This document shows positions 2,485-62,481 of a DNA stretch of 64,000 nucleotides, piece after piece. Numbering within the stretch: the stretch's first letter is position 1; the number at the start of each line of letters is the position of its first letter. The notes beneath the pieces are model-generated. The model was not told the DNA's origin. It saw nothing but the letters and a program-made list of their open reading frames with translations, and did no database searches. The translations under genes and the position numbers were made by a program. This DNA comes from Tridacna crocea (Eukaryota; Mollusca; Bivalvia; Cardiida; Cardiidae), in assembly GCA_943736015.1 (NCBI GenBank), contig OX031064.1:30689361-30753360 (forward strand). Direction: 5' to 3'.

Positions 2485-5400
2485 CTGAAAATAAATGAAT
2501 AATTTTTTACACCGTATCACAAGTAATAAGTCATGAAATTAGCCATTTACAAAACAATCCTCTGTTTCACTACCCTGAGGGAGAAGCCTTTACAAAACAT
2601 TGTGGGAAAAGGGAGAAAATGTTGATAAACAGCACTTTTCTCCTTTTTCCACCACAAGCATTTTCTCCTTTTCCCACAATGTTTTCTATACATTGAAAGA
2701 TCATCAGCTCATTTGCACTACATTTGAATTTTTAATCTGCAGACACTTTCAATTTGGAAAAGTCTGGACTTTGTAATTTGGGAAATGTTAAAGAAAACAC
2801 TCTCCGATTCTAAACCGTATTTCAGTAAAACATGAAATATATTTTCTACAACAGACTTAACTCTTTACCAAACAATCCCCGGTTTTAACGACCTCGAGAT
2901 AGGACCCTTTGGAAAACATTGTGTGAAAGGAGAAAATGCTGGCAACCAGCATATTCTCCTTTTCCCACACTGTTTTCTACCCTGCTGGAAACAAATTTCA
3001 TTTTTTGAGTTATGTTTATTTTTTCGCCAGCAAGTACATTCTTTCTGGACCAGTCTAAAACTTTGTCATTTGGTAAAGAGTTAAAAAGCATCCTTTCAAA
3101 GTATGGATACACAACATAAGCATAAGCCAGAAGCAAGTACATGTATATTATATTTTATGTCTATTTTTAGAAATGTTATGGTTAAAGAATTGTGGCAATT
3201 CAAGCTGGGGAGAATTATTTCCCTGTCACAGTGAATATTTTCCTCCTGCCGAAAATCTGGAACTACTATTTTTGAAAATATTAGTTATCCAGTTAATTGA
3301 CTTGAGATCACTAGTTTTAAAAGTGGCATTCATTGACAATATAATATATAATCTATTTCATCAGCTTGTGGTTAATATGGGGAAATATTTGCCTCAAAAA
3401 GGAAAGATCTGCGAAAATGGCTCATGCTTTATGGCACTCGTTATTTTCGCATACCTTTCCCTTTTGAGGCAAATATTTCCCCATATTAACCACAAGCTGA
3501 TGAAATAAATCTGTATCTTTACTTAAAATGTTTTCTAACATTTCATGCACGAGTCTCAACTTTTAACCCATACATAATTCCTCAACTACCAGTGCTTTTG
3601 AAATGGAACAGTCTTATATTTGTTCTGTACAGGATTACACAAGAAAACACTCACCCTGTAAGAACATTTTTAGCCAAAGTCAGTTTCTGTTGCTGCAGCT
3701 GTAGAATCTTCTCCTCCACCGTCTCCTTACACAAAAACCTGAAATTATTGGAAAAGAAAATGAGGAAATGAACAGCCGAAATACCGATGGAGATTTTATG
3801 GTTGATTTGGCAGTATCTGTAACAAAGTAATGGACATCACTGATAAAAGATTTGACTGCAAATCTTGATCTACACTGTCCTCAAAAGCTACTAAAGCCAT
3901 GTCCAGCTCTTTTACTCTTTCCTACACAAAACAGTATTTTGAATACCAAGAGCAAGAAAGATTAGAAAAATATGTGGGAAATGGAGATCATTAGCAAATC
4001 CTCCTCTTTCTAAATTGTTTTCTACCCTTTGAAAGGAAAATTTTATCATTTGCACCACATTTACATTGTCATATAAATATATTTTACTATATGACTAAGT
4101 TTTAAAACTTTCTCACAATAGTATTGACACCACTTTCTTTCCAAGACACCAACTACTTTTCTGATAGGCATCAGAGTTGAGAGGTGAAAAATTGCCGCAA
4201 TGAAAATTTGCCTCAGGGTTAAAATGAATACCACAATTTTACATTGCTAAAAAACCTTTTACATTCAAAATCATTTTTCTTCACATTTCATGCAAACAGT
4301 TTAAAAAAAATTATTAAAGAATCATTTTACCTATGGATGTACACATTTTTCTGTTGACCGACTCTATAAATTCGATCACAAGCTTGTTCCTCTAATTGGG
4401 GGTTCCTGCAAAAAAACAAGCAGTTCAAAAATACTTTCTGCTGACAACTTTTAGAGACTTGCAGCTGACCCCTTTTGAAAACATTGTGGCAAAAGGAGAT
4501 TCTTGTCTAGAGCAATGTCCCCTTTTTTAAAAATGTTTTTACTTGTATTTAACCTGGGATAAACCTAGTAAATTTAAACCTTTACCACATCATCCTGACT
4601 TTTGGAGGAAGATGGCTTATGAAAACATGGTGGAAAAACGAGAAAATGCTGGTAATCAGCATTTTCTCCTTTTCCCATAGTATTTTCTACCCTTCCCAAA
4701 CAGAAATTTCATTTTAAGAGTCAAATTTATTTTGTCGACTGCACATGCTTACAAATTGGACTGGTCCAACATTTTGTTGTTTGGTATAGAGTTATTTATT
4801 ACCAACAACAAAATTTTGACTTTACCAAGTTCAAAGCATCAGCAGACAAACTGTGTAATATTTATGGTTATCTGTCCCTATTGTATGAGATCCCCTCTTT
4901 ACCCATTACTACACATCCCTACTTTTGACGACCCTACTTTTGAGAACCCTATAGAAAACGTTGTGGGAAAAGGAGAAAATGCTGGTAGCCATTTTGTCAT
5001 CTGCAAATATTTTCGATTTGGACAAGCCAAAAATTTTGTCGTTTGGTAATGAGTTAATACATGTAGTTAAAAATTTGTCCAAGTTTGAAGTAAATGTCTT
5101 CAGTAATATATGAGAGATATTACAAAATGTCAAGAAATTTTTCAAATAACCAGGATGCTAGGCTATGACATTAACTTGTTTTTTCTGACAAGAGCCAGGC
5201 TAAAAGAATGCAACTTTGACCTGACATCCCCAAATGGGCAAGCAAAATCGAAAATTCCAGTATTTCAGAAGACCTTGTGAACGATGCTAAAAACTAGAGG
5301 CGCTTGAGCGCCTGTATCGCTCCACAGCACTGATTTTTCTTTAATGGTGAAGAGAAGTTTTTAACAATTACCATTCATTCCTGCATTTTAAGTCACTAAA

Positions 5401-8400
5401 GAAAAATAGCTATGAAAAACATTGTGAGAAAAGAAGAAAATAATAGTAACCTGCATTTTCTTAGATTTACACAATAATTTCTACCCTTTTTGATAAAAGT
5501 TTTACTAATTTGAAGATTTATTATGTTGTCTGCAACATCTTTCAATTATGATCAGTTATAAATTTTTTTTCATCTGCTTACAGTTAAAGAGGGTCTTGTT
5601 ACAAACCATTTTGGGTGGGGAAACATCAAAATACAGAATATATGAATTGTGGCAATTGTTTTACTGAAGTTGCAGAATCAGTTTGATTGGATAACAAAAT
5701 GCCTTATCACAGCAGTAAAGCCCTGTCCCTCTTTGTACTAGGTCACCAGTAGGTCAACAAACCTTTACCAGACCTAATAAAAGTGCAGAGGTTCTCTTGT
5801 TTTATATGAAAAGGGTTATAGACTATGTAAAGCAACCATCTTTAACTCTTTACCAAACAACAAAATTTGGGATGTGACCAAACTGAAAGCATTTGCAGAC
5901 AACAAATTTAACATAGATGAAATGGTGATTTCTCTCTTTGATGAAGTAGAACAGACTGAGGGAAAAGGAGAAAATGCTGATTACTAGCATTTTCTCCTTT
6001 TCCAAGTGTTTTCCAAAGACTTCTTTAGGGTCGTTAAAAGTCAGGATTGTATGGTAAAGACTTACCACCATAGGAACTAACCTGCAATACAACAATGAAA
6101 TCCAATGAATAGTTTGAGAGAAGAAATTTTTCAAAGATTTTACTTTATACCATAAAAGGAAAATGAGTCTCCCATGGCCATAAAAGCCATGTTTTTTGAC
6201 AGATCTTTTTTTTTTTTTAAGGAATTCTGTAGACCTCTAGCAAAGGAACATTCCTGCAAAATAATGATGCTATCCAATTAGCAGTTTGTGAGGAGAAGAT
6301 TTTTAAAGGTTTTTTACTTTGGTTGCCATGGCAACCAGAATTATTCATGGAACACAATTATTTGAAGGAATTTGAAATAGGACCACCTAAGGAACATTCC
6401 TGTGAAATTTGGTAAAAATCCAGTCAACAGTGTCTAAGGAGAAGTTTTTTAAAAGAAAAAGTTTACGGACGCACGGATGAACGACGGACACAACGCCATG
6501 ACAATAGCTCACTGGCCTTTGGCCAGTGGAGCTAAAAACCTCTTTGCCAAACAACAAAATTTCAGTCTTGCCCAAATTCAAAGCATTTGCTCACAACAAG
6601 ATAAATTTGACCCCAAAATTGGAATCTGTTCATGGAAGGGTAGAAAACACTGTGGGGAAAAAGGAGAAAATGCTGGTAACAAGCATTCTCTCCTTTTCCC
6701 ACAATTTAAAAAAAAAAAAAATTCTTTCCTTTAGTCATTAAAAGTTAGAATTGTGTGGTAAAGAATGAATTCTTTACCACCCAATCCAAACTTGTAATGA
6801 CCCTGAGAAAGAAAGCCTTCGAAAACATTGTAGGACAAGAGCTTCACAAAGCGGCGCATATATGCCCGAAGGGGCTTGTCAGTGAAATGAGTTGAAATGA
6901 CGGAAGGGCCATGAATGAAGAGTAGTTAATCTCCATGATATGTGAAAAATATTAAAGGGCAATAGGTAAAAAAAGAAAGGGTGGCACAGTTACAAATTTT
7001 GTAAATTGCTGTTCTCCACAAGGTGTTCTATCAGTTTTGAAAGGTTCAAGATCATAGCTTTTATATTTTAGAAATTATGGCCCAGACGAAAATTCAAAGA
7101 GAAAATTATCAAAGGGCAATAACTAAAAAAGAAGGATGGCAGAGTTATGGTTCTTATGCAGTGCACTTCTTTATAATGTGTACTATAAGTCTTTGAAGTT
7201 TCAAGATGATAGGTTTTAAAGTTTGGGAGTTATGGCCTGGACAAAAATTCAAACTAAAAAATTAACAAAGGGCAATAACTAAAAAAATAAAAGTCGCAGA
7301 GTTATGGTTCATGTGCACTGCACTTCTCCATAATGTGTTTTATCGGTGTATGAAGTTGCAAGTTATTAGCTTTTATAGTTTGAAAGTTATGGCCTGGACA
7401 AAAATTCAAACTGAAAATTAACAAAGGGCAATAAGTAAAAAAATAAAGGTCGCAGAGTTATGGTTCATGTGCAATGCACTTCTCCATAAAGTGTTCTATC
7501 AGTGTATGAGGTTGCGAATTATTAGCTTTTATAGTCCGGAAGTTATGGCCTGGACAAAAATTCAATCTGAAAATTAACAAAGGGCTGTAACTCAAAAAAT
7601 AAAAGTGGCAGAGTTATGGTTCATGTGCAATGCACTTCTCCACAATGTTATCTATCAATGTATGAAGTTGCAAGTTATTAGCTTTTATAGTTTAGAAGTT
7701 ATGGCCTGGACAAAAATTCAAACTGAAAATTAACAAAGGGCAATAACTCAAAAAATAAAGATGGCAGAGTTATGGTTCATGTGCAATGCACTTCTCCACA
7801 ATGTTATCTATCAATGTATGAAGTTACAAGTTATTAGCTTTTATAGTCCCGAAGTTATGGCCTGGACAAAAATTCAAACTGAAAATTAACAAAGGGCAAT
7901 AACTCAAAAAATAGAAGTGGCAGAGTTATGGTTCATGTGCAGTGCACTTCTCCACAATGTTATCTATCAATGTATGAAGTTCAAAGTTAATAGCTTTTAT
8001 AGTTTAGAAGTTATGGCCTGGACAAAAATTCAAACTGAAAATTAACAAAGGGCTGTAACTCAAAAAATAAAAGTGGCAGAGTTATGGTTTATGTGCACTG
8101 CACTTCTCCATAATGTGTTCTATCAGTGTATGAAGTTGCAAGTTATTAGCTTTTATAGTTATGAAGTTATGGCTTGGACAAAAATTCAAACTGAAAATTA
8201 ACAAAGGGCAATAACTCAAAAAATAAAAGTGGAAGAGTTATGGTTCATGTGCACTGCACTTCTCCATTTTGTGTTCTATCAGTGTATGTAGTTTCAATTT
8301 AATACCTTTTATGGTATGGAAGTTATGGCCTGAACAAAAATTCAAAGTGAAAAGTTGGTTATTTCAGAAATCAAGGGCAGATAATTTTGGAACGGAAACA

Positions 8401-11400
8401 GCGATCAAAATTTATGACCCAGGTGCACAACTACACATCATGGAGATTCATTGTGGCAAGTTTCAAATAATTCCGATGAAAACTGTAGGAGGAGTTGCGC
8501 ACACAAGAAATTGCTAACGGACGGACGGACGACCAGGGGTATAACATAATACGACCCTTCGGGCGTATAAAAAGGAGAAAATGCTGGTAACCAGCATTTT
8601 TCTCCTTTTCCCACAATGTTTTCTACCCTTTCCAAATTAAATTTTAATTTTTGATTCACATCTATTTTGTTTTCTGCAAATGCTTTCAATTTGGACTAGT
8701 CCAAAATTTTGTTGTTTGGTAAAGAGTTAAGTAAGACTAATTTTCTTACCAATGACTATCCAGCAGAAATAGATGATTTCCACCAATCAGATTTAAGCCA
8801 CACCCTCCTGCCCTGAGAGATACCAGCATGACCTGTGGACCATGCGGATCATTGTTGAACTGGTCCACAGACTCCATTCTCTTTTTGGCTGGAATGTTAC
8901 CCTGTATAACTGAGTATCTGATGTCCATGTTTCTCAGGTGTATTGTGACAATGTCTAACATCTTGGTCCACTGTGATACTATCACACTGAAAGTTAGAAA
9001 AGCTGTATTATACTCAATAACCCAGGTCTCTGTAACAGATAAGGGGAATTTTAGACTGAACTGGAGTTTAACCCTTTTCCACAGTCACGAATTTAAGCAA
9101 GCCTCAGAAAGAAGCTTATAGAAAACATTGTGGGAAAAGGAGAAAATGCTGCTTACCAGCATTTTCTCCATTTCCCTCAATATTTTCTACCTTATCAAAG
9201 TCAGAAATCATCATAATAACAATATTCAATTTGTTGTCTACAGATGCTTTGAGGTAGATCCAGTCAAAAAGTTTGTCATTTGGTAAAAAGTTAAATGCCA
9301 TTTTAACAACTAAGTTCAAATCATACTAGTAAGAGCACCCATGTATTTTATTGCTTTCTCATACCAGTATTGGTTCAACTTTCTTTCCAAGTAACTAAGT
9401 ACTTTTGCAAATACTTTCAACATGGCCAAGTCTTAACTCATTACCAAACATCAAAATTTTAGCTTTGTCCAAATCGAAAGCATTTGCAGACGACAAAATA
9501 AAAGTTACTAAAAATTTGTAATTAGTTTTGTGAATAAAGGAAAACATTGTGGGAAAAGGAGAAAATGCTGGTTACCAGCATTTTCTCCTTTTCCCACAAT
9601 GTTTTCGAAAGGCTTCTTTCTCAGGGGCGTCAAAAGTAGGGATTGTGTGGTAATGGGTTAAACAACAATTTCTTCATTTCTATAAGTTTTTTATATTAAA
9701 TTATTCATGCAGAAATTTGTATTTTTTTTTTGTGTGTGGCTATCCTTCTTTAATAGGGATATCTTATAACTTTTAGCAAATAATCTCAAGTTTTGATGAC
9801 CTGAAGAAACCTTTTGAAAACATTGCAGGAAAAGCAGCATTTTCCTCTTTTCCCACAATGTTTTCTACCCTGTCACAGACAAATCACATCATTTTAGCTG
9901 CATTTAGAATATAATCTGCCAATACTTTCACTTTTGACATTTTGTTATGTTGTGAAGAGTTTAATATACCAGCTGCAAATAAGTTTCAGTAAAAACCTAT
10001 TCCATCTTTTTATTACCCAAACTTTACCTTTTACATTTGTCTTTAGGACTCCCTTCCTTATGTATCTTGTGAAGTTCATCCAGCAAGGCCTTCATCTGAA
10101 AGGTAAAATACCGAGTTTGCTAACATGTAGAACACACACACAGAGCTCCAGATAAGAGGGAGCGGTGATATTCTAAATCCATTATTTCTCTTCCAAAGCT
10201 TATGCTGTGGGTACTCATTAGAATCCTCTCAATGAGACGATTCTTATGAGTACCCATAACATAGTGTTTAGTGGTGAATAATTAAAATTTTGACATTTGA
10301 AGTAAAATAAACTCCCCCTACCTGGTGCTCTGAAATAAATGCACCATGCTCTGGCAAAAGAGGGCTTCATGCATTTCCATGATGCCTGATACCAAGCAAG
10401 TCATTACATACTTAAGGATCCATCATATCCACTTAAAAAAAACAAAAACAATTTAACCCTTTCCCAAACGACAAATTTTGGACTCTTCCAAACCAAAACA
10501 GTTTGCAGACGATAATTTTAGATTTGGAGAAAATGGCATAAAGTTCTCAAAAAGGGTAGAAAACACTGTGGGAAAAGGAGAAACTGCTCATTACGAGCAA
10601 TTTCTCCTTTTCTGAAACCTTGTTTCAAAAGACTTTTACTGCAGACACGTAAAAACCCTGGCTTGTTTGGGAAAGGGTTAACCACTGGGTAGACTGGTCT
10701 TTTGAAAAACAGAATACATGTATTGACAAACACTGAAATGTTTTGGCCCAGGTCAGCCTGCATGTACTGCGACCTGGGTCGATACTTCCTTGTTACTGAA
10801 CATGACTCAAATCAATTTTACACTTTTAGACTTAAAATCAAGTGAGGCCATATTGAAAGTTTACAGCTGAAGACTTTAGAGCGAAAGAACATCCAGAGAG
10901 CCATCAGTTAACCATATCACTCTATGCATTTAGTATCATGCCTCCAATACAAGATGATGTTAATGCAGAATAATGGTTTTTGCCACAGATATATAATGTG
11001 TTTGTTTAACCATACATCTTCCTTTGTTTTCAAAATATTGCCTCTGATGGTTGCACTGATTACGGCAGATAGAAAATGCATTTCATCCTATTGCAATTAG
11101 CCATGGACGTAACAGCCACAGTTCCCGGTTTAAATCGAAGACAAATCCGTACTGTACAGTTTCTTTACCCCATACACCTTATATTGGTTTTTTATCTATG
11201 TTTACTCAGCAAACAAGATTATAACAAACTCAAATTTTAACAGTCTGGCTGTGCATATGTTTCTTTAACCCATTACCACACAATTTCTACTTTTGACAAC
11301 CCTGAGAAAGAAGCCTTGAGAAAACATTGTGGGAAAGGGAGAAAATGCTGGTAACCAGCATTTTCTCCTTTTCCCACAATGTTTTCTACCTTTACAAACA

Positions 11401-14400
11401 AGTTTCAAATTTTCAATCACTTTATTTTAATTCTGCAAATGCTTTCAATTTGGACAAACCTAAATTTTTGTCATTTGGTAATGAGTTAAGGAAACACATT
11501 TACTTCCCTGCTGTAGCTTTTGAAGCAACATAGTAGGACATTTGCCTTTGGATCTAGAGATACCGGCTTCAATTTTTATTACAAATGCTTGTGTACTGTA
11601 GTTTGCATTCATACTTAAAGCAGCACTATAAGTGACTGACCTTTGTACTAACAGATTCAGGCTTGAAGATGACTGAGGACTTTTTAATGGCTGGTTCCCC
11701 AGTTTTGGTGTCATCTTCCAACAGTAGGTCCATCATCTGTTCCTCCAGTGTCAACTCCAAACCTTCATTTTGTTGTGTCTCTTCATCAAATGCCTGTTCA
11801 AAACAATCTATGTAAATCAACCAAATCTACCTACAGCTAATACTTGACCTGATCATACCCCTCGCCAGCTCCTTACCATAAAACAGGGGTTTTTGTCACC
11901 CAATGCAGAATGGTTTAGTGCAAAAGTAAGAGTTGAAAAAATTCAAGGGGAGATCATTCCGCAAAAATTGGCAGTAAGGTCATGAAAATTGCACATCCAC
12001 AAGTTTACATATACAGGAACACTGTGTAAATTTGAGTTAGGTATCTGAAAAACTCTTCTAGTATTTTGCAAATTTGTGTCTACACATAGAAACTTAGACG
12101 GATAGAGAGAGAGCAATGGCGATTCTAGTATACCCCCTCTACTTTGTTGTGCTGGGTATAATAAGTTACCAAGGCAGTGACTAATGAAATATCGTCAGTT
12201 TGCTTCCAAAACCTCGTAACTACAGCTTGTTTCAAGCTGTAGTTACGAGATTTTGGAAGCAAACTGACGATATGTGGAATGGAAGGGTAAAAATGCCTTG
12301 AACATAAATGGCACCATACTTTCTTCTGGTTGAATGGCACATGCTGTTTACCTTGGTCACTAGTGTGCAGGAACTACTGTTTCCGTCCTCAATTGAAAAG
12401 GAAAAGAGTATGAAATCAGTATTTTTCACTGGTTGTAACCATGATACTTCACACCACAATCCACCATCATTTTCGATAAACTACCAAAAAGCATTAACCC
12501 TTTATCACACAATCCTTGGTTTTCACAACAAATATAGAGCATATGAAAACATTTGGTAACCAGCATTTTCTCCTTTTCCCACAATGTTTTCCATCCTTCC
12601 AAAAGCAAATTTTACTTTTTCAGTCACAATTTTTTTTGTTGTCTGCAAATGCTTTCAATTTGTACCAGTCTAAAATTTTCTCGTGTGGTAAAGCGTTACA
12701 TAAACTTACATCCTTCATCAAACTAAGGTGACAGCAGCATTGTCTAAGCCTTAACAACATCACTAAAATCTGCTGGCCTCTAACATTTCCATGTTGAGTG
12801 GCAGGCTGGTTCATGTCTCCACTCCCAGGATACCCACTGACTGTCCCAGACTGGCTTACAGTTGATTTCTCCATGAATGGGTTAGTAGTCGTTAGCTTTC
12901 CATCATCTTTAGCCAGCTCTTTCTCGTCATGTTTTCGTAGATACTCTTTCAATACAGACCTTTGTAAGATAATGGTTAACAGTTTACCCTATGAAAGCTG
13001 TAAGATATTTTTGTATGTTCTTTTTTTTTTCAGATATCATTCGATCTTAACCCTTGTCCTGCTAAATAACTAAAACTGAAATTTTAAATTCGATAGTAAA
13101 ACCTGAAAAATTGTTATTTCAAAGGGATGTTTCGGAAAAAAAAAAATCTCCAGGTCGGACAGCGTAGATCCAAGATCATAATGCACATTCTGTGCAGTCT
13201 GATCTTGATCTACCCTGTCCGCAAAATGTCTGTGAGACACGATAAGCAGCCAAAGGGTCAACTCTTTTCAAAACGATTAAATTTTTGCAAAGTCAGAATT
13301 CAAAGCATTTGCAAGATAAAAATTTCAGTTTGGCCCATATGATGGAATTTTTGTTTGAGAGAATAGAAAATACAGTGGGAAAAGGAGAAAATGCTATTTA
13401 CTGGCATTGCCTCCTTTTCTCATAATGTTTTCAAAAGCCTTCTTTTTTAGTGTCTATAAAACCTGTGATTGCATGGCACTTTAATTCTTTACCAAACAAC
13501 ATTTTAGACTTGTCCAAATTTAAAGCATTTGCAGGCAAAAAACTGAGCATGGCTGAAATATTAAAATTTGTTTTTGAAAGGGAAGAAAACAATCTTGGGA
13601 AAAGAAGAAAATGCTGGTTACTTTCTTCTTTCCCCAAAATGTTTTCAAAAGCCCTTCTTTCACAGGGTCTTTAAAACTGGGGATTGTGTGGTAAAGGGTT
13701 AACCTTTTCCTAAACAGCAAATTTTGGACTAGACCAAATTGAAAGCATTTTGCAAGTGACAAATAAACAGTTGTTAAAAAGATGATTTTTCTATAGGGTG
13801 GCATAGAAAACATGTGGGAAAAGGAGAAAATGCTGGTTACCAGCATTTTCTCCTTTTCCTACAATGTTTTCAAAAGGCTTCTATACCTGACCCGTAAAAA
13901 CCAGGGATTGTTCGGGAAAAAGTTAAATATGTTTCAAAATCACTATCAAAGTACTCAAACTGAAAGCTTAGGTCTTTTGAACAGGCAATGAATAATACAT
14001 ACTGCTTTGCATGAATGAAATCATCAAAGAGAAAATGAAACCAGGTAATAAATAGTTTTGATCTCTTCTGTTAGCAGTAGGAGCTGCTGCTATATATATA
14101 TATATATGAAGACTTTTGAACAAGCCAAGTACATATACACATGGCATATGAATACAGATAAAACTTCAAAGTACCTTTTCTGTCTTGTCATTGACTATCC
14201 TGTATACAGGATAAACGTTATACTGCCCTTTACAAGCTATGAAAAGCTTGTATTTCCAGAGATTCATTCAAGCAAGTCATTTCATACTCAAGGAAACATA
14301 AAATTCATTCTGTCTCACAATCAACTGAATCATGACATAGAATGGTCCTTTGACATGCAGGAAATTAACAAAAAAGTTACGTTTCAACCTTTCTCAGCCT

Positions 14401-17400: not shown

Positions 17401-20400
17401 GTTTTGGAAGCACACAAAACATTGTGGGAATAGGAGAAAATGCTGGTTTCCAGCATTCTCTTTTCCCACAATGTTTTCAAAAGGCTTCTTTCTCAGGGTC
17501 ATTAAAAGTCGGGTTATATGGTAAGGAGTTTAAACTCTGGATTGTGTAGTAAATGGTTATGAAGGCAAAAATTCTGACCAAGTTTCATGAGAAATGAACC
17601 AAAGTAATGAGGTTGTACTTACAAGAGCCTTCCCTGTTACAGTTGAAGTCTGTGATTTTGTCCTTCGCAGTAACAAACATTTCACCAACACATTCAGCCT
17701 GTCCTGACCCATAGCTGGTGTATAGAAGAGAAAACAATTTCTGGATTATTTAAAAATCAATACATGTAATATGAAAATATAAAAATAAACCTTTGTTCCC
17801 CTTTGTCTGTTCACCACACACCAAAATCTCAGGCTTGAGAAGTTGTTCGAATTCAAAATATTAACAGTCTACAAATTAGATGTGTCTCCAATGATGGTAA
17901 TTGTCCTTGAAAGTGTAGAAAATGCTGGTAATCAGCATTTTCTTCACTTTCAAGGACAATTACCTTCTTTTCCTTAAAAACTGCAAAAGGGTGAAAGAAA
18001 CGACTAATAAAGATCAGTGAGCAATATGCATGTACACCTAACCATTACAGAAACACACAAATCATTTGGATAGATTCAGACTCTGCACTGTGAAGGAACA
18101 TGTATGATACAAACTCCATTGATAGATTATATTTTACTTAAATCCATTTTCAAAATTATTTAACTAATATCCCACAGATGATGCACAATCCATGCTTTCC
18201 TGATGTTTCAATTACCTGTACTACAAGATAGTCTTTCCAAGCCACTGGCTGCTTTCCCACATTACCATTATTACCATTATCAAAATAATGATAAGCTGTG
18301 AGAGAGGAATGAATCCTGTCTCAATGACCACATGAACAAATCATCCAACACTTTAGAAAGTGAAAACTGTAGATCAAAGATCAGACATCTGTTCAGTCCT
18401 ATCTTGCCCTATATTTTTCTTCATCAGCCCTGTCTGTTGTGGCAGGCGTTTGAATGACAAAGTCCAATGATAAAAAAATTTACTGACCATTTCCTGTGTC
18501 AACCTGTCTCTTCCATACCTTATACTCATCAAATGGTGTACATCTTAGGAACCTGATTAAAGATTTATGAGTTTGCCATGTCATTTTTATGCCACTTATA
18601 CCATACGATAATAAATTTCCAGCTTTTGCTAGAAGGGAACTGTCTGTTAAATCAGTTAAAATTTTAAAACACCTACAAAAATTAAAATCTTAAGAGTAAC
18701 ATACACAAGTTCATATCATAGACATTTATTCTGGTAAGTTTCAAATTGTTTTGATGGAAACTGTAGGTGGAGTTGCACACACAAGAAACTGCTAACAGAT
18801 GGACAGATAGACAGATGACAGGGCCATAAAATAATACCACCCTTCAGGCGTATAAAAAGCCTAAGCAAACAAACAAAGACATGTGTGATTGTGCGTGTAT
18901 GTGGTAAAAGTTTAACTCTAAAACAAACAACAAAGTTTTAGATATGTTCATGATGGAAGCATTTGCAGGCTATAAACTAGATTTGATTCAGATGATGAGT
19001 TCTTTACCACTCAATTGTGACTTTTAAATACATGTACCCTGAAATTGAAAGCTGTTGAAAACTTTGTGGTATGAGAGGAAAATGCTGGTACACATCATTT
19101 TCTCCTTTCACAATATGCTTTCTATCCTCTCAAGGAGATTACATAACTTGTATCTTTTTCCACGACAGTTGCTACTCTCTCAAAGACAGATGTCACAAAT
19201 TGTTTCTTTTCCCACAATGTTTTCTATCTTTACTGGGACAAAAATTATCATTTGAGTTACTTTCAATTTTTGGTCAGTAAATGCTCTCAATTTAGTGGAG
19301 ACCAAAGTTTGGTCATTTGATAAAGGGTTAAATAAGTTGAAAACATCATTGGAAAAGGAGAAAATGCTAGTTACCAGCATTTTCTTCTTTTCCTATGATG
19401 TTTCAAAAGCCTCCATATGTAACTGTGGCTAATCTAGTAAAGTGTTAAACAGCATACTCCCAGACTACCAAAAATCACTACATTTTCATGGGAGTATCAT
19501 TGGGCAAATAAATTCAGACCGCTAGCCTAGCACTGGTGGAACCTAGGAAATACATGAATATCTGAGTTGACCTCGTCATATGACTGAAAATATGTTGAAA
19601 GTGGCATAAAGCACCGTTCAATCAATAAAATTCACTACTCACCTTAACAGTGAATACATATCCAACAGGTCATTCTGTATAGGTGTTCCTGTTAATGCCC
19701 ATCTAAATCCTGATCTCAGTCTACAAACTGCTCTTGACTGCAAACTTTTATGATTCTTTATATTGTGGGCTTCATCTAGTATGATTCGCTCCCAGGCAAT
19801 TCTCATGATATTTGGCTGTTGTGCAATGCTCAATGTAGACTTTTCTTTTTCCTAAATGATGAAGAAAAATTTTAAGGAATCTTTTTTTTTGTAATTTTTT
19901 TCCGCAACAAATTTGGACTTGTCTGCATTGAAAGCATTTGCAGACATCCAATCTATTGGTATATCTACAAATGGGTAGGAAAAGGAAACAAGAGCACCAC
20001 ACATGGTTGCAAAGACTTGATTGCAGTTGCTTCTTGAATTAGATCATTTTTTAAAGTATATATTCTGAGTTGTAAAAGAGCCACAGCTGTGTCAGTATAC
20101 CTTGAAGTTTATTTGTATTGGTTTCCCTTTAAATAGGTAGTATCTAGTCTAAGTGTATAGTAAATATCATCTATAATGTCAGATGTTATAAAATGTCAAG
20201 TTTTGCATGACAAATTCTAGTTCTAAAGAGGGTGATAAACACGGCGGGGAATCACGTGACACAACAACAACAACAATGACCGTTATTTGAAAAAATCCCC
20301 AACTTCAGGTAAGAAAATCTTCAATAATTCCGTTAATACATGACCGATTCGAATTTGGTTTGAAGCAGAGAAGGCGGAAGGACTCCGGGGATTTGCTTGA

Positions 20401-23400
20401 TGTGTTAGATTTTTTAAACAACACCTGATAAAAAAGTTATTGACGAGCAAACAAATTTTTTACCCTGGATAATTTGTTTGCTCGTCAATAACTTTTTTAT
20501 CAGGTGTTGTTTAAAAAATCTAACACATCAAGCAAATCCCCGGAGTACTTCCGCCTTCTCTGCTTCAAACCAAATTCGAATCGGTCATGTATTAACGGAA
20601 TTATTGAAGATTTTCTTACCTGAAGTTGGGGAATTTTTTCAAATAACGGTCATTGTTGTTGTTGTTGTGTCACGTGATTCCCCGCCGTGGATAAATGTGT
20701 AAAAAAATGTTTTAATGATTGCCTGCTCTTATTCTATGGACCACTTTTGATGATAAACATATGGCCTGAGTTTGAAGTGAATGTTTTCGGTAATGACAGC
20801 CATATTGTCAAATTTAAAAATTTCTGCATGATGATGCAGACAACGAAAGGGGTATGACAATAACTATATGTTTTCTTTAAAAAACAGCCAGGCTAAAAAT
20901 GCGCCAGATTTTCTCTTTTGATGTTTTCTATCAATTCAAAGACATCTGTCATCGTTTGAGGTAATTCTAATATGTCACCTGCAGATAATTTTGATGTAGA
21001 TAGGTCCAAGCAATGTTGACTTGTACAGAGTTACTCTATTTGACATTTACAACACAATCACAAGTTTTTACGACTCTGAGATGAAGGGCTTTTGAAAAAA
21101 TCTCAGGGAATGGTGAAAATGCTGGTATTAATTAGAGTTATCTCCTTTTCCCACAAGTTTTCTACCCTTTTTGGTACAAATAATATCACTTCTGCCACTC
21201 TTTTTATTTGTCATCTACAGAAGTTTTCAATTCTGACCAGTATAGAACTTTGTTTTCTAGTAAAGGGTTAATGTACAAATACTATTTCACTGCTATCACA
21301 GCAATAGCTCACTTATTTGTGACTCTCCTGGGTTGGGTGACATGCTGCATTCCCACATTAACAAAACTGCTTCAGGGTTCAAACCAGGATTTCTTGGCTA
21401 CAAATTCAAAACCTTTACCAATGCATTTGAGACTGCACAGCAATTTCTTCTGGCTTCTTTGCTGTTTTATATTTCATTTATGAATAAAAAAAAAATTAAA
21501 AAAAAACATCCCAGTGATGGCTATACTGAACACTACCTACCCCACTTTCATCCTTACTGTTAACTTCTTCATCATCTTTGATGGGCTGGTCCCCATTCTT
21601 GTCTTTCTCATCTACAACAACCTCCTTACCCACAATATTGTAGGTTGTTAGAACTACGTCATGCGCTGCTAGTCTGTAACATAGTATTAGTATTAGTCTA
21701 CCAGCTAGACAACAACTTGTATATGACTGAAGTGATACCCTCCTTTGTTCCTATATTCTAAAATTTAGATTTTTTTGACAAAACAATTTATTTCGTGTGT
21801 TTGTTCAAGAGAACTATTTGTTTTGTAACCTAGAATATCAATCTAGCATAGACCATCTGAACTATATTCCTGTATATTAAGACTGTTTTGCACAGGAATG
21901 TGCACATTCTAATCAATTGGCTGTGGAATAGATTAAATAACACTGACTGTTTGAAACCAGCTTTTTTACTCCTTTTTTCCAACACTGTTTTCAAAAGCCT
22001 CCATTCTGGACAACATTAAAACACAGGATAGTGAAAGAAAGTGTTAACAGTTTACCAAACAATCCCTAGTTTTTATTATCCTTAGAAAGAAGCCTTTTGA
22101 AAACATTGTGGGAAAAGGAGAAAATGCTGGTAACCAGCATTTTCTCCTTTTCCACCAATCTTTTTCTACCCTACTGGAAACCAATTTCATTGTTTCAGTT
22201 ACCTTTGTTGTCTGCAAGTTCTTTTAGCTTTGACCTGTTGAAAATTTTGTCATGTGGTAAAGTCTTCATCAAATTTGAAACAAACTCCAAAATAACTTAC
22301 TTCAGGATATTTCTCTCTCTGTTTGGACCATGATACATACAAACACGAAGTAGGCCAGGTTTACAACGTCTCTCTATCTCCGTCCTCCAATGATGTATCA
22401 AAGATGCTGGACAAATTATCAGAGTAGCGCTAGACTTCACAATAGATTTATCCACTGTGAAAAAAACAGTAATATCTGGATGTTTTATCCTTGAAGAGGT
22501 TGGTCGTAATGGGGTTTAACGCCACTTAAACAGCTAAGGTCATATCGTGGCGGTCGGTGACGCACATGTTTCCTGGTTTTCTCATACCAGTACTAACAAA
22601 CTTTCTTTCCAAAGCCACTGACTACTTTTCTCACATGCTTCAGTAGAGGTGAGAGGTGAAAATACGCCAGAAAGAAAGTACGCTTCAACCATGTATCAAA
22701 CTCACAACCACCAGGTCATGAATCTGACATGCTCACCAGTGAGCCATCCGGGCGGGCATCCTTTAAGAGGAGCTATTAGATAAGTTTGAATTGATTAAAT
22801 AGCTGCATTTAGAAATTTTTATGCTATGGCAGTATACTAATTTTTGAAAACTCTTTAGAAAAAAGGACTAACTAATTTAACAAAATAACTGGTTGTTCCT
22901 TTTCCTACAATGCTTCTTACTCAGAATCTCCTGAACTTCCCAAATGACATATTTCTCTTTTGAATTTAAAACATTACAGATGACATATTTGATATCAGTA
23001 CAAATGAGCTTAAGTTCTGAAAACAGGATAGAAAACATTGTATGAAAATGAGAAATTGCTTGTTACCAGTAAACTTCATCTTTTCCCACTGTATTCTCAA
23101 AAGCCTTCTTCCTCAGGGTTGTTAACATGGGATCATAGAGTTATGAATATTATGTTGCACTTAATAGCATCAAGATTTTCAAACATATACACCTTAAAAA
23201 CCTCAATGTCACATTAACTCTTTACCAAATGACAAAATTTTGGACCAGTTCAAATTGAAAATATTTGCAGACAACAAAAAAAAATGTGACCCAAAGATTT
23301 GTATCTGATTTGGGAAAAAGAGAAAACATTGTGGGAAAAGGAGAAAATGCTGGTCACTAGTATTTTCGCCTTTTCCCACAATGTTGTCAAAAGCTTTATT

Positions 23401-26400
23401 TCTCAGGGTCATTAAAAGTCAGGATTGTGTGGTAAAGAGTTAAAGTATTATTGTTGAATGTATTGATCAAGATCATAGGGAACAGGTCTAAAACATAAGG
23501 TTATGCAGGTTAACTCTTTATGAGACAAAACCTTAGATCCATACTGATTTATATCAAAAATATTCAAAGCATTTGCAGAAGACAACTGAAATGTGATATA
23601 AATGATGGGATTTCTGCTTTGAAAAGTAGAAAACATTGTGGAAAAAGGAGTGAATGCGGGTCAGTAGCCTTCTTCTTTTCTCATGATTATTTCCTAGCTC
23701 CTTTTCCCTAAATATCCTTCTTCCTCGAACGACAAAATTTTAGACAAACCCAAAATCTAATCATTTGCAGATGACAAAATGTGACAGAAAATTGTGACTT
23801 GTTTTGGGAAGGGTAGGAAACATTGTGGGAAAAGGAGAAAATGTTGGTTACCAGCATTTTCTTTTTTTTCCCACAATATTATCAAAAGGGTCTTTGTTAG
23901 GTTTGATAAAGTTTACAACATGTAAAGGATTAAAACATATAACTGTATATGACCCAATTAACTTACTTTTCTTCAGTTGTTCATCTCTATTCAGCCATAG
24001 TTTCTGCTCATCCTCACTTCCGCATTTCTTTGATTCATTCTGTTTCAATATCAGTGAGATCATTGTCAGGGTCTTGCCAAGTCCCATATCATCAGCTGTA
24101 ATTATTTTACCACAATAAATAAAAAAGTTCTAGAATACATATCTATACTCTTCAAAATTTGATAGAGATACAAAATATTGTTTTCTTAAAGATACATCTA
24201 TACTTATCAAAATTTGATAGGGATAAAAAAATTATGTAGAGCTTTATGGGTATTTCTAAAAACGTAGACCTGTTCCACACAATCCTGAGATTTAATGACC
24301 AGTAAGAAGAGATCTTTTGAAAATATTGTTAGAAAAGGAGAAAATGCTGCCACTGTTTTCAAATTAGACATGTTCAAAATTTTGTTATCTAATAAATGGT
24401 TAGTCTAGAACTGTTCCATATCAAAATATTTCTAAGACAGCAGAAACCATCTTTTTTGTTTGATTTGATTTGTTGTTTTGCTTTGTCCTTTTTAGAAACT
24501 CCTTACCAAATGACAAAATTCTATACCTGAGCATTGGCAGACAACAATTTGAATGTAGCTCAAAAAGTTGATTTCTGTCTATAATAGGGTAGAAAACATT
24601 GTGGGTAAAGGAGAAAATGCTTCCACTGCTTTCAAATTTTAGAATTTTTGTTGTTTGATAAATTGCTAGTCAAAAGGTTTGAGTAAAAGTAAGACAAGAC
24701 GGCCAAGATGGCCTTGGATCGCTCACCTGAATTTTTGAGAGGACCATAGCCTTTTTCTTTTTTAAGGTATTGAAACACTGGAAACAAAATCATTATTTTG
24801 CCAAGCAATTTTTAAAAGATCACCTGCAAATGTCCTTTCGAAATCTGGCCAGCAGTGTCAAAAAAGAAGAATTTATAGGAGTTTCTTAATTTCTGTACAG
24901 TGCAAGTAGCCCCCATTCACCAGAGCAATGTTTCTTGACGAATCAAACTTTCACGAACAATTTTTGAAAAGGGTCACCAAAGGAATATCTCTGTGAAAAT
25001 TTTCCAAAATCTGACCAGCCGTTTCAGAGAAGAAGAATTTTTAAGAATTTCTTTATTGCCCTATAGTGCAAGTAGCCCCCATTTACCAGAGCCATGTTTC
25101 TTGATGAATCATAATTTCACGAACATTTTTTGAAAAGGGTCACCCAAGGAACATCTCTGTGAAATTATTTCAAAATCTGACCAGCCGTTCGAGAGAAGAA
25201 GAATTTTTAAGAATTTCTTCATTTCCCTATAGCGCAAGTAGCCCCCATTCACCAGAGCCATGTTTCTTGACCTATCAAAATTTCACAAACAAGTTTTGAA
25301 AAGGGTCACCCAAAGAACATCTTTGTGAAATCATTTCAAAATCTGACCAGCAGTTTCAACGAAGAAGAATTTTTTAAGAATTTCTTCATTTCTGTATAGT
25401 GCAAGAAGCCCCCATTTACCAGAGCCATGTTTCTTGACGGATCAAAATTTCGCGATCAATTTTTGAAAAGGGTCACCCAAGGAACATCTGTGTAAAATTA
25501 TTTTAAAATCTGGCCAGCGGTTTCTGAGAAGAAGAATTTTTAAGAATTTCTTCATTTCTATATAGTGCAAGAAACTGTGCATGGCAACCAGAGTTTTTGA
25601 CGGAATCAAATTCTGTGAACAATTTTTAAAGAGGGCCTCCCAAGGAACATTCCAGCCAAGTTTGGTCCAAATTGGCCCAGCGGTTTAGGAGGAGTTGATG
25701 TTTAAAGAATTGTTGACGACGCACGACGGACACCGGGTGATCCTAAAAGTTCCCCTTGAGCACGTTGTGCTCAGGTGAGCTAAAGACAGAAACCATCTTT
25801 TTTTCCCCAAAAAGTAAGAGAACAGAAACTATCTTTTTTATTTTTTTCATTTGTTTTGTTGTCTTCTGACAACTCTTTACCAAACTACAAAACTTTATAC
25901 CTCAGCAAAACTGGAGCTGTCACTGAATGTGACTTAATACACCCGCCAGCACTTTGATTTTGTACACAGAGAGACACACAGAAACCCGGAAGGACAAACA
26001 GACAGACAGGCTGATGCCAGTATACCACCGAAAGCATTCGTTTTGTGGGGATATAATGAAGGCAATGGTATTTGAATGTAGCTTAAAATGGTGATATTTA
26101 TCTTTGATAGGGTAGATAACATTGTGGTAAAAGGAGAAAATCCTGGTTACAATGTTTTCATAGGCCATCTTCCTCATGGTCGTTAAACTCCAGATTGTGT
26201 GGTAAAGGATCAAAGACATGTGAGCCATTGGTCTTGGCAATTGACTTTCAGTTAACAAATTTATATACCCAGAATTCCCCCAGAAGGAGACTGTCTTTCC
26301 CTCCATGTCAGCCAGAGAAGAGCTTGTCTCTGATGAACCATCAAGGGGACATTCACACCTTTAGGATCCTCCAGTTCTGCTGTAGCCTCAGGACATGTTT

Positions 26401-29400: not shown

Positions 29401-32400
29401 GGTGTAAGATTGGAATTATATCATTATATCAGTACGAACTGTTTGTAGTTGTAGTTTTTGAAAGTATACAGCTAAAAAGTATCTCTAAAAAGCAGATTGT
29501 GGCTATGTAAGCGTAATACAATATCAGTCAAAACTACATCTGTCTGTTAGTGTTTCAGCAAAGATATTTTTTGGGCTGTCAGAATAAAGACATAATGATA
29601 GATTGATGCTTACTCAAAGTATATACAGTCAACAGCATAGTAAAGGAGGAATTATGCAAAAGTGGGCTAGTTCATCTTCTTTCAACAGCATTTTATAACT
29701 TTTTAAATAATCAGCTGCTTACCTGCATACATCTGCTGTAGTATATGTGGAGGGATCTGGGCCATGTGGGGCAGCAGTGTTGTCTGTCTTAACTGCTCTG
29801 GATTGTGTGGTTGGTGATGACCTGTCAATACCGAGTTTATTTCATCAGCTTGTGGTTAATATGGGGAAATATTTGCCAAAAAAGGGAAAGGTATAGGAAA
29901 ATAATGAGTGCCTTATGGCACTTGTTATTTTCGTATACCTTTCCCTTTTTCGGTAAATATTTTCCCATATTAACTACAAGGTGATGAAATAAATTATATT
30001 TCATATTTCTTCTGATTCTTTTGTCAACAAATGCCACTTTTAAAACTAGTGATCACAAGTCAATTAACCGCATAACCGAAAAGTAGTTCCAGATTTTCGG
30101 CAGGAGAAATATATTCACTGTGAGGGGGAAATAATCCCCCCCCCGCTTAAATTACGATATTTCTTTACTCATAACATTTCTAAAAATAGATACATGAAAT
30201 ATAAATTGATAATATCTACTAAATAATGGGCAAAAAATATTAAGACTTCCCAAAGTGGATTCACCTGCAGATATCAAATCAAAAGTTAGTCAACTGCTTG
30301 AATCTGTCTTTGAAAGGGTAGAAAAAATTTTGGGAAAAGAAGAAAATGCTAATAACCAGAATGAATGTATTTGTGGATATTTCAAACATAGGTAAATTGT
30401 TGGAATCTGTCTTCGAAATGGTAGAAAAAGTGGGAAAATGAGAGCCTGTAACCAGACGATAGTACATGTACACTTAGATGACAAATCAAATGTAGCTCAA
30501 ATGCTGCAGGCTGGTTTTTGAAAGGGTAGAAAATGTTATGGGAAACTAGTAACCAGCATTTTCTCCTTTTCCCACACTTTTTCAAAAGTCCTCTGTCGAA
30601 GGGTTGCACAGTCTCAAGTTTGATTCTGTAACCATTTTAACCCTTTACCTCACAATGACAACTTTTGACGCTCCAGGAAAAGAAGCTTTTAGAAAACATT
30701 GGGGAAAAGAATAAAATGCTGGTAACCAGCATTTTCTCCTTTTCCCATAATGTTTTCTACTCTATCAAAGAAAAATTACACCATTTGAGCCAATCTGAAA
30801 TTGTCATCTGCAAATTTGGACAAGTCTAGAATTTTGTCGTCTGGTAAAGGGTAAAATTAAATCAATTTTGGATTGATTTGACATGGGAAGAGAATCAAAT
30901 TAAAGAAGTTTTACTAAATGTCAAATTTTCAGTAACAATAAAGATTGCCAGTGCAAAAGGTCAAAGTTTTGGCACAACTACAATGTTGATAAGGCTATAA
31001 CATAAATTGTCATTTTCTCCAAACACAGACCAGGTAAAAGTGAGAAAATAACTAGACCTACCACAGTATCACTACATGTGATTATACCCCCCAGAGGTCT
31101 TTGTCACAGACTACAGAATGGTTTAGTACAAAAGTAAGAGTCAAAAAAGTTCAAGGGGAGATAATTCTGCAACGAATTGCAGCAGGGTCATGAAAATTGC
31201 ACATGCACAACTTCACATATATAGGAACCCATGTGTAAATTTGAGCTCAGTACATGAAAAACTGTACGGGAATTGCTGCAGACAAATTTGTGTCTACAGA
31301 CAGATGGACGGACAGACAGACAGCCATGGTGATTCCAGTATTCCCCCTCCACTACCTTGTGGGGGTGTAATTATGTTGTCCTCTTTACCAAATGTTGTAT
31401 GCAAGAGAATTACCTGTGACTGATACATTTGAAGCTAACACCTTTTGTTCTCCATTTGGGTAGATCTTTATGACTTGGGGTTGCTTAGGTAATATCTGCT
31501 TAAAACCAGTCTGTAATGATTTTTGCGCTGGCACTGGTCCACTGCCATGTTTAAAACCTGAAAATATTACACATATTATAGTGGTTTCTTTCTCTGTGAG
31601 TGGTTTACAGCAAGTGACTATAAAGGAGACAACTGCATATACTGAAAGTGACCATAAAGGAGATAACTGCATATGCTTTCTTTTTCAGAGTGCATATCCC
31701 CGAATTATGGAACCCTTTACCAAAAACCATGTGTTTTGAATAACCTTGAAAAAAAAGAGCTGTTTACAACATACAGGAACAAGAGCTTCACAGAGGGGCG
31801 CATATACGCCTGAAGGGGCTTGTAAGTGAAATGAGTTGAAATGATGGATGGGCCATGAATAAGGAGTAGTCATTATCCATGATATGTGAAAAATATTAAA
31901 GGGCAATAACTAAAAAAAAAAAATAAGGGTAGCACAGTTACAATTTTGTGAATTGCTCTTCACCACAAGGTGTTCTATCAGTCTTTGAAGGTTCAAGATC
32001 ATAGCTTTTATATTTTAGAAATTATGGCACAGACGAAAATTCAAAGTGAAACTAACAAAGGGCAATAACTCAAAAAGAAGGAAGGCAGGGTTATGGTTCT
32101 TGCAGAATGCACTTCTTGATAATGTGTTCTATTAGTCTTTGAAGTTGCAAGATGATGGATTTTGAAGTTTGGAAGTTATGGTCTTTACAAAAATTCAAAC
32201 TGATACTTAACAAAGGGCAATAACTCAAAAAATAAAGGTTATGGTTCATGTGCACTGTACTTCTCCATAATGGGTTCTATCAGTGTATGAAGTTCCAAGT
32301 TAATAGCTTTTATAGTTTGGAAGTTATGGCCTGGACAAAAATTCAAACTGAAAATTAACAAAGGGCAGTAACTCAAAAAATAAAGGTGGCAGAGTTATGG

Positions 32401-35400
32401 TTCATGTGCACTGCACTTCTCCATAATGTGTTCTATCAGTGTATGTAGTTTCAAGTTGATACCTTTTATAGTTTGGAAGTTATGGCCTGATAAAAAATTC
32501 AAAGTGAAAATTTTTTTTTCCAGAAATCAAGGGCAGATAATTTTAGAACGCAAACAGGGATCCACATTCTAAGAGTCAGGCCCACAACTAGACATCATGG
32601 AGATTCATTGTGGCAAGTTTGAAATATTTCCAATGGAAACTGTAGGAGTTGCGCACACGAGAAATTGCTAACAGACGGACAGACCAGCGGACAACTGGGG
32701 GTATAACATAATATGACCCTTTGGATGTATAAAAAGGATATGATGAAAGTTTCCATTATTTGATACTTTTTCTACAATGTTTTCTCTCATTATAGTGACT
32801 GAAATCAATCTAAGAGATACAATTAACATGTCATCAGCAAAAAATGTTAATGCTTTTGATTTAGTGGAGTGTAAAATTCTGTCATTTTGTAAAGAATTGA
32901 GAAGTTATATATTAAACTACACTCTTGACACAGTGATAAAATATTAGACCCTTTCAGTCTCATCTTCTTTTCCCACATTTCAAAGAACGTTAAAACAATA
33001 TTTTCAAAGTTTTATTAACTGTGCTCTTTTTCATCCATTCAAAAGCTAGAAACTGTCACCTGCCTGTAGAATTGTTTGTCAACACACCCAGTTTCACCTT
33101 TTTCTCTTTGATACCCATGTTCAGTGTGTGTATATCTCTAGTCAATGTCTCTATACTTTGTTTCAGCTTTGCTCCTTTATCCTCTAGTTGTGACATGTTA
33201 ACCTTGGCAACAAGTCCCTGCCAATACAGAGTTACAAAGTACTTTTAACATTTAACTCTTTACCAAATGACAAACATTTAGACTAGTCCAAATTGAAAGC
33301 AAATGCAGACAAACAAAATAAAAGCGACTGGAAAGCTGAAATTTGTTTTGGGAAGGAAAGAAAACATTGTGGCAGCATTTTCTCCTTTTCCAACAATATT
33401 TCTAGAGGACTTCTTTCTCAGGGTTGTTAAAGTCAGGATTGTGTGGTAAAGGGTTAACCATGACAAAACTTGTAAAAATTCAAAGCATTTCCAGACGACA
33501 ATTAAAATCAACAAAGTCTTATTTCATGTTTTTGGTAATTATTCAGGAAAAAATAGTGGATAATAAGGTTTGATATTGAAGTCATGTCTATGGCTAGTGA
33601 AATAAACTGTAACTATTTCCATTACTCCCAATATTGAAAGTGGAAACAGTAGCTCCCATGAGGTATTTACTTAAAAATACTGAATTATCAAAAACAACTG
33701 TACAGGACTTTCACGAATGTACCAACAAAAAAGGGGTTAAAAGCATGAGAAAATTTCAAGGATCCTGCATACATCAAAGGTAAGTGTAGGTTCTGGAAGT
33801 CCTGGATTTAAGCCTCACTGGATCCACTAGTTTTTTTGTGTAAGTGTCCATGACAAGACACTTTAGACTTAGAAACCAGGACTACTGCTGGTGAAACCAA
33901 GGAAACACATGATATATGTGACCTATCACCATGGCACAATGTATTTTAAATAATGATGAAAGTGGTGTAAAACACAATTCAGTCAATCAATCAAAACTCA
34001 ATCAAACAAATCACACCTTTTGTTTCTGGAGCAACTGAAACAGACCCTCTCTTTTCTTTCTATCTTGCTGGAGAGAAAACTGTAGTCCTTTGATCTGATC
34101 TGTATGCTGATTGGTTTTCAAACTATCATTTGTACCACCTGTCTGATTTCTCATAGCTGTCCACTGTGGTGCTTGTTGTCCTAAGGGAGGTTGAGATTCA
34201 ATTCCTTTACTGAGTGAGGCAAATGACTGTAAGGACTGAGTGGGTAAGTTTGAACTTACAGTTCTCTGCTGATGCTTGTCAGGGTCATTCGGACCTGAAG
34301 AAGTCTCCTTGTCAGTTTCATCATCACTTGTAAGATCTATCACATTCTCAGATGATGGCTTGGTAGGTTTTTGTCCCAATTTTACATCTAAACTTGCTGT
34401 AGAGCCAGGTTTTTGAAGTCTTTCTCTAAGAGGTTTATCAAGATTTATTCCAGTTTCCGTATTGCTTTCTGCTTTCTGTTCACTTTTATCAGCAACTTTC
34501 TCCACACTGTTTTTACTCAGTATAAGTTCACTTTTTGTTTGTTCAATATCTTTAGTAATTAAATTGTTCAAATTGTTCTTTTTCTGATGGCCATTCTCCG
34601 CTTGTTTTACCATTAATCCAGTCTTATCATCCAAGATAGCTGTTGAATTCTCAATACTCATGTTTTGTAGATCTGCACTAACATTAGATACATCTTTCTC
34701 ACTAACCTTTGAGTGTCTATTACTTGTTGTATGTATACCTGGACCTCCAGCTACATTATCATTACCTTCATCACCTAAATTGTTAAGTCGAGAAGCTTTT
34801 GAAGCAGAATCATCTAAGGTTTTCAAATTATCCCCAGGTATTTCTGTTTTAACTTGTTTTTTTCGCTCTCTGTACTCCAGTAGTGATATTTTTGGCTTGC
34901 TACCTTTGTCTTTTTCTGGTTCTTTTGTCATGTTGTTCTTCTGATCTTTTATGCAATCCTTGTCCATGGTAGTCAAGTAGTTTGTTTTATTCTTATGATA
35001 ATTCAGTCTTGAAAGAGGTTTAGATCCCTGCACCTGAAAAAAAAAGTTACAAGATACCACAGAATTAACCCTTTACCAAACAATTCCAAGTTTCAACAAT
35101 CCCAGCAAATAAGACTCGAAAACATGCCAGTAAAAAAGGTACATGTATTTTCTCCACTTCCAACTGTGTTTTCTACTCAATTGAGGACAATACCATCACT
35201 TGTGCTATTTTTGTGTATTGTCTGCAAATGCTGTCAATTTGGTTGTGCCTAAAATGTTTTTGTGTTGTTAACCCTGTATATGACATACCAAACAACAAAA
35301 AAGTATAGATTCATCCAAACTGGAAGCATTTTACAAATGACAATCTAGATTTTGGCTTAATTACGTAACTCCTCTTTGATAGGTTACAAAATATTGTGGG

Positions 35401-62480: not shown

Positions 62481-62481
62481 A

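What the first reader, a model, noticed from the sequence alone, without database searches (positions are those of the whole stretch)
20240..20689. 450-bp near-perfect palindrome with GATAAA target duplications, nested three deep
Arms of about 215 bp differ at one position that I can see, and the element is flanked by identical 6-bp GATAAA. It sits in a HINE-like relic that is itself bordered by MITE pieces, inside a TTF2 intron. Such symmetry means either very recent origin or continuing arm-to-arm conversion. The transcript would be one long hairpin. I cannot assign it to a family.
Basis: seen in the sequence. Interest (0 to 1): 0.72.

Follow-up and report, generated by a model that had tools for sequence, protein, structure and literature searches.

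The report
Young family of near-palindromic mobile elements
The 450-base palindrome is one of well over a thousand copies of a small, non-coding jumping element made of little more than the two mirror-image ends of a larger transposon, and its two arms seem now and then to copy mutations from one to the other.

Summary
The palindrome is real, at the stated coordinates, flanked by GATAAA. It is not an assembly artefact: its 23-base tip occurs 1884 times forward and 1880 times reverse in the window's own genome (reversed-pattern control 0). Of 109 paired copies examined, 108 carry a target duplication: 5 bp in 70, 6 in 30, 7 in 6, 4 in 2. It is a MITE. Longer relatives (2.1, 2.9, 4.5, 5.7 kb) share its tips and have long inverted ends 87-91% like the MITE arm, spacer included; the MITE is what remains when everything between the ends is deleted. 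No transposase was found, so the superfamily stays open. The symmetry is mostly inherited: the family consensus is already palindromic (arms 98.6%). Weak arm-to-arm copying is also supported: rare variants mirrored in both arms of one copy number 6 against 0.47 in shuffles (0 of 1000 reach 6). The window copy's own mirrored variant occurs in six arms genome-wide, two of them its own. Spacer inversion is suggested in two lineages. Ordinary as an element; useful as a natural assay of palindrome evolution.

The parts
20234..20239 (.). left target-site duplication GATAAA (6 bp)
   Evidence: 30 of 109 copies examined have a 6-bp duplication
20240..20457 (+). left arm of the MITE, derived from one terminal inverted repeat of a longer transposon; tip CACGGCGGGGAATCACGTGACAC
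   Evidence: the consensus arm matches the inverted ends of L111, L112, L114 and L117 at 87-91%
20458..20470 (.). central spacer, part of the parent's inverted end (CCCTGGATAA) kept on one side only
   Evidence: the same stretch lies inside both inverted ends of the 2.1-kb relative L111
20471..20689 (-). right arm, the mirror copy of the left arm; 1 substitution and 1 indel apart
20690..20695 (.). right target-site duplication GATAAA
20306..20313 (+). CAGGTAAG, 5' splice-donor-like sequence in the left arm, mirrored in the right arm; perhaps a relic of the parent's first intron (inference)
   Evidence: consensus arm position 68 on both strands; window sequence
20615..20622 (-). mirror copy of the CAGGTAAG motif in the right arm
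   Evidence: for the consensus
19642..19851 (-). coding stretch of the host gene (SNF2-family helicase, DEAH and LTGTPIQN motifs)
   Evidence: Pfam PF00176 E 5e-19; PDB matches led by RAD5
23851..24129 (-). open stretch with the DDMGLGKT motif, upstream part of the same kind of helicase; the MITE lies between the two, hence probably in an intron
   Evidence: Pfam PF00176 E 3e-6 over residues 10-40
19036..19408 (.). old repeat pieces flanking the insertion on the left
   Evidence: matches to other pieces nearby at about 73-90%
21046..21161 (.). old repeat piece flanking on the right, member of a large dispersed family, about 70-81% identity

Best explanation
It is a MITE, a non-autonomous DNA transposon, inserted into old repeat DNA in an intron of an SNF2-family gene. 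It arose when a longer transposon with long inverted ends lost everything between those ends. The left end was kept to about position 234, including the stretch that is now the spacer; the right end was kept to about position 219; and the two were joined, perhaps at a 2-bp AA microhomology. A transposase supplied in trans, not identified here, recognised the CAC..GTG tips and spread the product to some 1,500-1,900 sites, usually duplicating 5 to 7 bp. Copies are near-palindromic because the master was and because the spread is fairly recent. After or during insertion an arm was occasionally rewritten from its mirror arm, by template switching or hairpin repair, and the spacer was occasionally flipped. 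Shown: family, copy number, duplications, shared ends with longer elements, excess of mirrored rare variants. Inferred: direction from long element to MITE, the deletion mechanism, the transposase in trans, the route of arm-to-arm copying.
For: Tips 1884 forward and 1880 reverse, control 0. Of 41 listed places, 40 match the whole 450 bp at 98-100% and one at 95%. Target duplications in 108 of 109 paired copies. Consensus 451 bp with arms 216/219 identical. Relatives with the same kind of tips and long inverted ends: L111 2111 bp (exact TTGTT duplication), L112 2888 bp (TACTAT/TTCTAT), L114 5662 bp (TTAACC/CTAACC), the L112-L117 element about 4.5 kb (ATTAA/GTTAA). Both ends of L111 contain the MITE spacer. 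Arm copying: 6 mirrored rare non-CpG variants in 99 copies against shuffle mean 0.47, maximum 3, 0 of 1000 reaching 6. The window allele is in 6 arms genome-wide, two being both arms of the window copy; the other four carriers each have it in one arm only. The L100 allele is in 21 arms, with one same-copy pair. Arm alleles swapped relative to the spacer in L013, L014 and L073.
Against: No transposase was found in any longer copy, but only 16 of the 53 open stretches printed were given to Pfam. Nothing reached a curated cut-off; one stretch of L114 gave weak helix-turn-helix matches (E 0.02-0.03) and by reading looks like a Tc1/mariner insert. The mirrored-variant count is small: two of the six (L033, L107) share one allele, and at the strictest cut (alleles in at most 2 arms) there are 2 against 0.13, a value that some shuffles reach. 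Some mirrored changes could be inherited from unsampled sources. At the three consensus arm differences, all CpG sites, one-arm changes give no separate support for copying. In 3 of 4 longer elements the duplication has one mismatch. The tip count includes some longer and shorter relatives: of 58 tip-bearing places in the C1 sample, 45 are paired copies of 430-470 bp.
Confidence: 0.9

Rival explanations
1. Continuing arm-to-arm conversion is the main reason why the arms are alike; without it they would have diverged.
For: Mirrored rare variants exceed chance. The window copy's arms (1 substitution, 1 indel) are more alike than those of any of 45 full-length copies taken in contig order from C1 (arm-arm differences 3 to 30, median 8).
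Against: Single-arm rare changes outnumber mirrored ones by 243 to 6, so conversion touches only a few per cent of changes. The consensus itself has arms 98.6% alike, and typical copies have gone on to differ arm from arm (median 8).
Confidence: 0.08
2. The window palindrome is an assembly fold-back artefact.
For: Near-perfect palindromes are a known form of assembly error (general knowledge).
Against: Well over a thousand copies with the same structure, different flanks and target duplications; a spacer that is not symmetric; an arm mismatch and an indel in this copy.
Confidence: 0.01
3. A functional hairpin locus, for instance a dsRNA or small-RNA source kept by selection in this intron.
For: The transcript would form a long hairpin; MITEs have given rise to microRNA genes (start of abstract of PMC1784062, seen in the listing).
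Against: The copy is one of many, with ordinary divergence from the consensus; nothing found sets it apart. No RNA data were available.
Confidence: 0.04
4. The element belongs to the Transib/RAG-like group: CAC..GTG tips, mostly 5-bp duplications.
For: Tips start CAC; 70 of 109 copies have 5-bp duplications. Transib and RAG-like elements share these traits (passages of PMC7204232).
Against: 36 of 109 duplications are 6 or 7 bp, whereas those of protostome RAG-like elements are 'invariably 5 bp'. The tip does not fit their consensus CACTWMCAAACKTYKBB beyond CAC. No RAG1 match, but that search rang in no control genome either.
Confidence: 0.15

Closest known systems
MITEs, as a structural class of non-autonomous TIR DNA transposons
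   Same: short, non-coding, inverted ends, target duplication, high copy number, ends shared with longer elements
   Different: almost no unique centre: the two inverted ends meet, so the whole element is one palindrome; target duplications vary, mostly 5 to 7 bp
Galileo (P superfamily) and Foldback-like elements with long inverted ends
   Same: very long inverted ends; copies that hold two ends and no transposase segment (passages of PMC4168063)
   Different: Galileo duplications are 7 or 8 bp with consensus GTATTAC; here mostly 5 bp, and no P-type transposase was seen
Transib and protostome RAG-like transposons
   Same: CAC tips, 5-bp duplications in most copies
   Different: duplications of 6-7 bp in a third of copies; tip otherwise unlike the published protostome consensus; no transposase found
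Inverted-repeat arm homogenisation and spacer inversion by template switching (Abraham and Hazkani-Covo 2021, PMC8604942)
   Same: changes that make arms alike and flips of the spacer, the two outcomes described there (passages); the paper also cites earlier cases of homogenisation of long repeats
   Different: that study is of short repeats in yeast genes; here arms of about 219 bp in many copies of one MITE, and the route is inferred only

Membership tests
MITE | terminal inverted repeats with defined tips | tested here: met
MITE | target-site duplication | tested here: met
   108 of 109 paired copies
MITE | short, non-coding, many near-identical copies | tested here: met
   451-bp consensus; 1884 and 1880 tip matches
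MITE | ends shared with a longer element of the same genome | tested here: met
   L111, L112, L114, L117
MITE | autonomous partner with transposase | tested here: inconclusive
   none found; only 16 of 53 open stretches printed searched
Transib/RAG-like | CAC..GTG tips | tested here: met
Transib/RAG-like | 5-bp target duplication, almost invariable | tested here: not met
   70 of 109 are 5 bp, 30 are 6, 6 are 7, 2 are 4, 1 none
Transib/RAG-like | RAG1-like or Transib transposase | tested here: inconclusive
   PF12940: no match, but the control also did not ring; Transib not searched
IS3EU | TA..TA tips, usually 6-bp duplication | tested here: not met
   tips CAC..GTG; features from passages of PMC10045372
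P superfamily (Galileo) | 7-8 bp duplication | tested here: not met
   6 of 109 are 7 bp, none 8; feature from passages of PMC4168063

The most novel reading that the evidence does not exclude
Well over a thousand natural copies of one 450-bp palindrome in one genome record continuing exchange between the arms. New mutations are copied to the mirror arm and the spacer is flipped inside single insertions after they land, so the family is a ready-made, replicated assay of template switching or hairpin repair in long palindromes. Its mover may also be a transposase with an unusually loose 5-7 bp stagger, not yet matched to a superfamily.
Probability: 0.45. Interest if true: 0.5.

Novelty: new member of a known kind. 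Interest (0 to 1): 0.33.

Why it matters
As an element it is an ordinary kind: a MITE made of two joined inverted ends. It matters a little more for two reasons. The family shows plainly how a near-perfect palindrome can arise and persist with little need for continuing conversion. And because the genome holds well over a thousand copies of one palindrome, rare mirrored changes can be counted and separated from inherited ones, which would give a measurable rate of arm-to-arm copying and spacer flipping.

Tried and rejected
Assembly artefact: rejected. Phage origin: no near match in the phage collection. RAG1-like partner: PF12940 gave nothing, but the control did not ring either, so this is uninformative. 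L083-L109 as a long parent: the 4.4-kb span holds repeats and a TTAA-bounded repeat beside the right tip, and the flanks match by TGA only, so I do not count it as one element. L110 (inner side of L086) holds no second tip. L116 (inner part of a possible 7.2-kb copy), L118 and L119 showed nothing that I recognised as a transposase; of these only L116 stretches went to Pfam. L118 and L119 are largely one duplicated stretch (95.7% over 1592 bp). I first took the three consensus arm differences as signs of conversion; they are CpG sites and by my arithmetic the one-arm changes at position 102 look independent, so I dropped that argument. Over all sites 46 mirrored changes stand against 9.86 in shuffles, but much of that is subfamily alleles (position 44 mirrored in 14 copies), so I used only rare alleles. 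Literature: IS3EU and IS481EU set aside by tip or duplication (outline and passages of PMC10045372). Searches for palindromic or bivalve MITEs of this kind listed none that I recognised as this family; only listings were read there, plus passages of PMC10294476.

Rows dropped: arm analyses used full-length copies of 430-470 bp only, 78 of 84 and 103 of 109; CpG sites, runs of four or more and the CAA repeat were left out, leaving 138 mirrored positions. Part of the sample was picked by similarity to the window copy. L140-L142 were fetched because they carry the window allele; they and L001 are left out of the 99-copy test. The alleles counted were chosen because they were mirrored in the sample.
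Full report
Observation. The palindrome is at 20240-20689, 450 bp, tips CACGGCGGGG...CCCCGCCGTG, flanked on both sides by GATAAA. The arms differ by one substitution and one single-base indel. Folded as RNA it reaches -389.6 kcal/mol against -99.2 for shuffles. It is the only copy found in the window.

Family. The window lies in an unnamed 1.05-Gb genome of 31 contigs. A 23-base tip pattern with up to two mismatches occurs 1884 times forward and 1880 times reverse; the pattern read backwards occurs 0 times. An intact copy gives one forward and one reverse match. Of 58 tip-bearing places examined in the C1 sample (51 paired, 7 unpaired), 45 are paired copies of 430-470 bp, so I estimate some 1,500-1,900 copies, part of the tips belonging to longer or shorter relatives. 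In one search, 40 of 41 listed places match over the full length at 98-100% and one at 95%. In 109 paired copies the duplication is 5 bp in 70, 6 in 30, 7 in 6, 4 in 2 and absent in 1; in the 51 paired copies taken in contig order from C1 it is 36, 11, 2, 1 and 1. A length of 6 is not 5 plus a chance base, because the two readings are in different register.

Divergence. The consensus is 451 bp, built from 44 copies largely picked by similarity to the window copy. Its arms differ at three positions, all CpG-type sites, and in the spacer. The 45 full-length C1 copies differ from it by a median of 11 substitutions over 438 bp, and arm from arm by a median of 8. The window copy has 6 mismatches and one gap against it.

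Origin. A search with a diverged tip found pairs of tips 2.1 and 2.9 kb apart. The fetched elements have the same kind of tips and inverted ends of at least about 220-235 bp (L111 2111 bp; L112 2888 bp). L114 is 5662 bp, and the element spanning L112 and L117 is about 4.5 kb. Left and right ends within one element are 88-92% alike; the MITE arm is 87-91% like each. Both ends of L111 contain CCCTGGATAA, which in the MITE is the spacer. The MITE is therefore read as the left end to about position 234 joined to the right end to about position 219. The junction GGATAA/TTTG shares AA with both ends, so a 2-bp microhomology deletion is possible (inference). A donor-like CAGGTAAG lies at arm position 68 on both strands, perhaps a relic of the parent's first intron (inference). 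No transposase was recognised (16 of the 53 open stretches printed were searched). RAG1 was not detected, but that search had no working control.

Why the arms are alike. The master was palindromic and the spread is fairly recent; that explains most of it. A second, weaker cause is arm-to-arm copying. At 138 mirrored positions outside CpG sites and simple repeats, variants seen in at most 4 arms are mirrored in the same copy 6 times in 99 copies; shuffling right arms among copies gives 0.47 on average, maximum 3, and 0 of 1000 shuffles reach 6. Single-arm rare changes number 243. Two of the six share one allele and may be one event; at the strictest cut (at most 2 arms) the count is 2 against 0.13, which some of 300 shuffles reach. 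Two alleles were then counted over the whole genome. The window copy's mirrored G to C at arm position 112 is found in 6 arms, two of which are its own; the other four carriers have it in one arm only. With about 3,760 arms, six random carriers would share a copy about 0.004 times (my arithmetic; the allele was chosen because it was mirrored). The L100 allele is in 21 arms with one same-copy pair. Three copies in two lineages (L013 and L014; L073) have arm alleles swapped relative to the spacer, as spacer inversion would give. Template switching is known to cause both outcomes (passages of PMC8604942); hairpin repair during transposition could too (inference).

Setting. Minus-strand SNF2-family open stretches at 23851-24129 and 19642-19851 place the insertion in a probable intron. 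Old repeat pieces lie outside it. None of the 40 scored candidates (of 2893) other than the site itself spans the insertion point, so the middle HINE layer is unconfirmed and the empty site was not shown by a paralogue.

Classification. A MITE by the features that could be tested, short of an autonomous partner. Superfamily open: CAC tips and mostly 5-bp duplications recall Transib and RAG-like elements (passages of PMC7204232), but a third of the duplications are longer and the rest of the tip does not fit. That Transib tips can begin CACGGTGG is my recollection and comes from no call. The organism was not identified; that it may be a mollusc is a guess and was not tested.

Noticed in passing
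window 6945-8356 and 31889-32513: Tandem-like arrays about 71-77% similar to a repeat of roughly 156-bp spacing in L118 2280-3373; possibly satellite-like units carried by mobile elements.
   Followed up: no
window 237-461, 1398-1624, 9466-9661, 11260-11493, 37116-37308, 62286-62493, 63046-63274: Dispersed copies of a repeat of about 230 bp, 75-82% like L118 3805-4036 (output cut at 3000 characters, so not all are listed).
   Followed up: no
window 40332-43369 (+): Two long overlapping open stretches (702 and 416 aa) that read like RNase H and tyrosine recombinase of a DIRS-type retrotransposon (assignment from reading, not tested).
   Followed up: no
L113 73-267 (C2:39150672-39150866): A 195-bp miniature relative with the same tips and an ATACA duplication, shorter than the 450-bp family.
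   Followed up: partly
L109 about 3826-4207: An insert bounded by TTAA with inverted ends GGTAAGACCTGTGTAATG, sitting beside a tip of the present family; part of it has 1512 first-look candidates in the genome, 40 scored.
   Followed up: partly
L052, L049, L055, L059, L065; L083, L086: Copies of 321-373 bp with internal deletions, and one-armed copies broken near the centre, as might be expected if the palindrome centre is fragile.
   Followed up: partly
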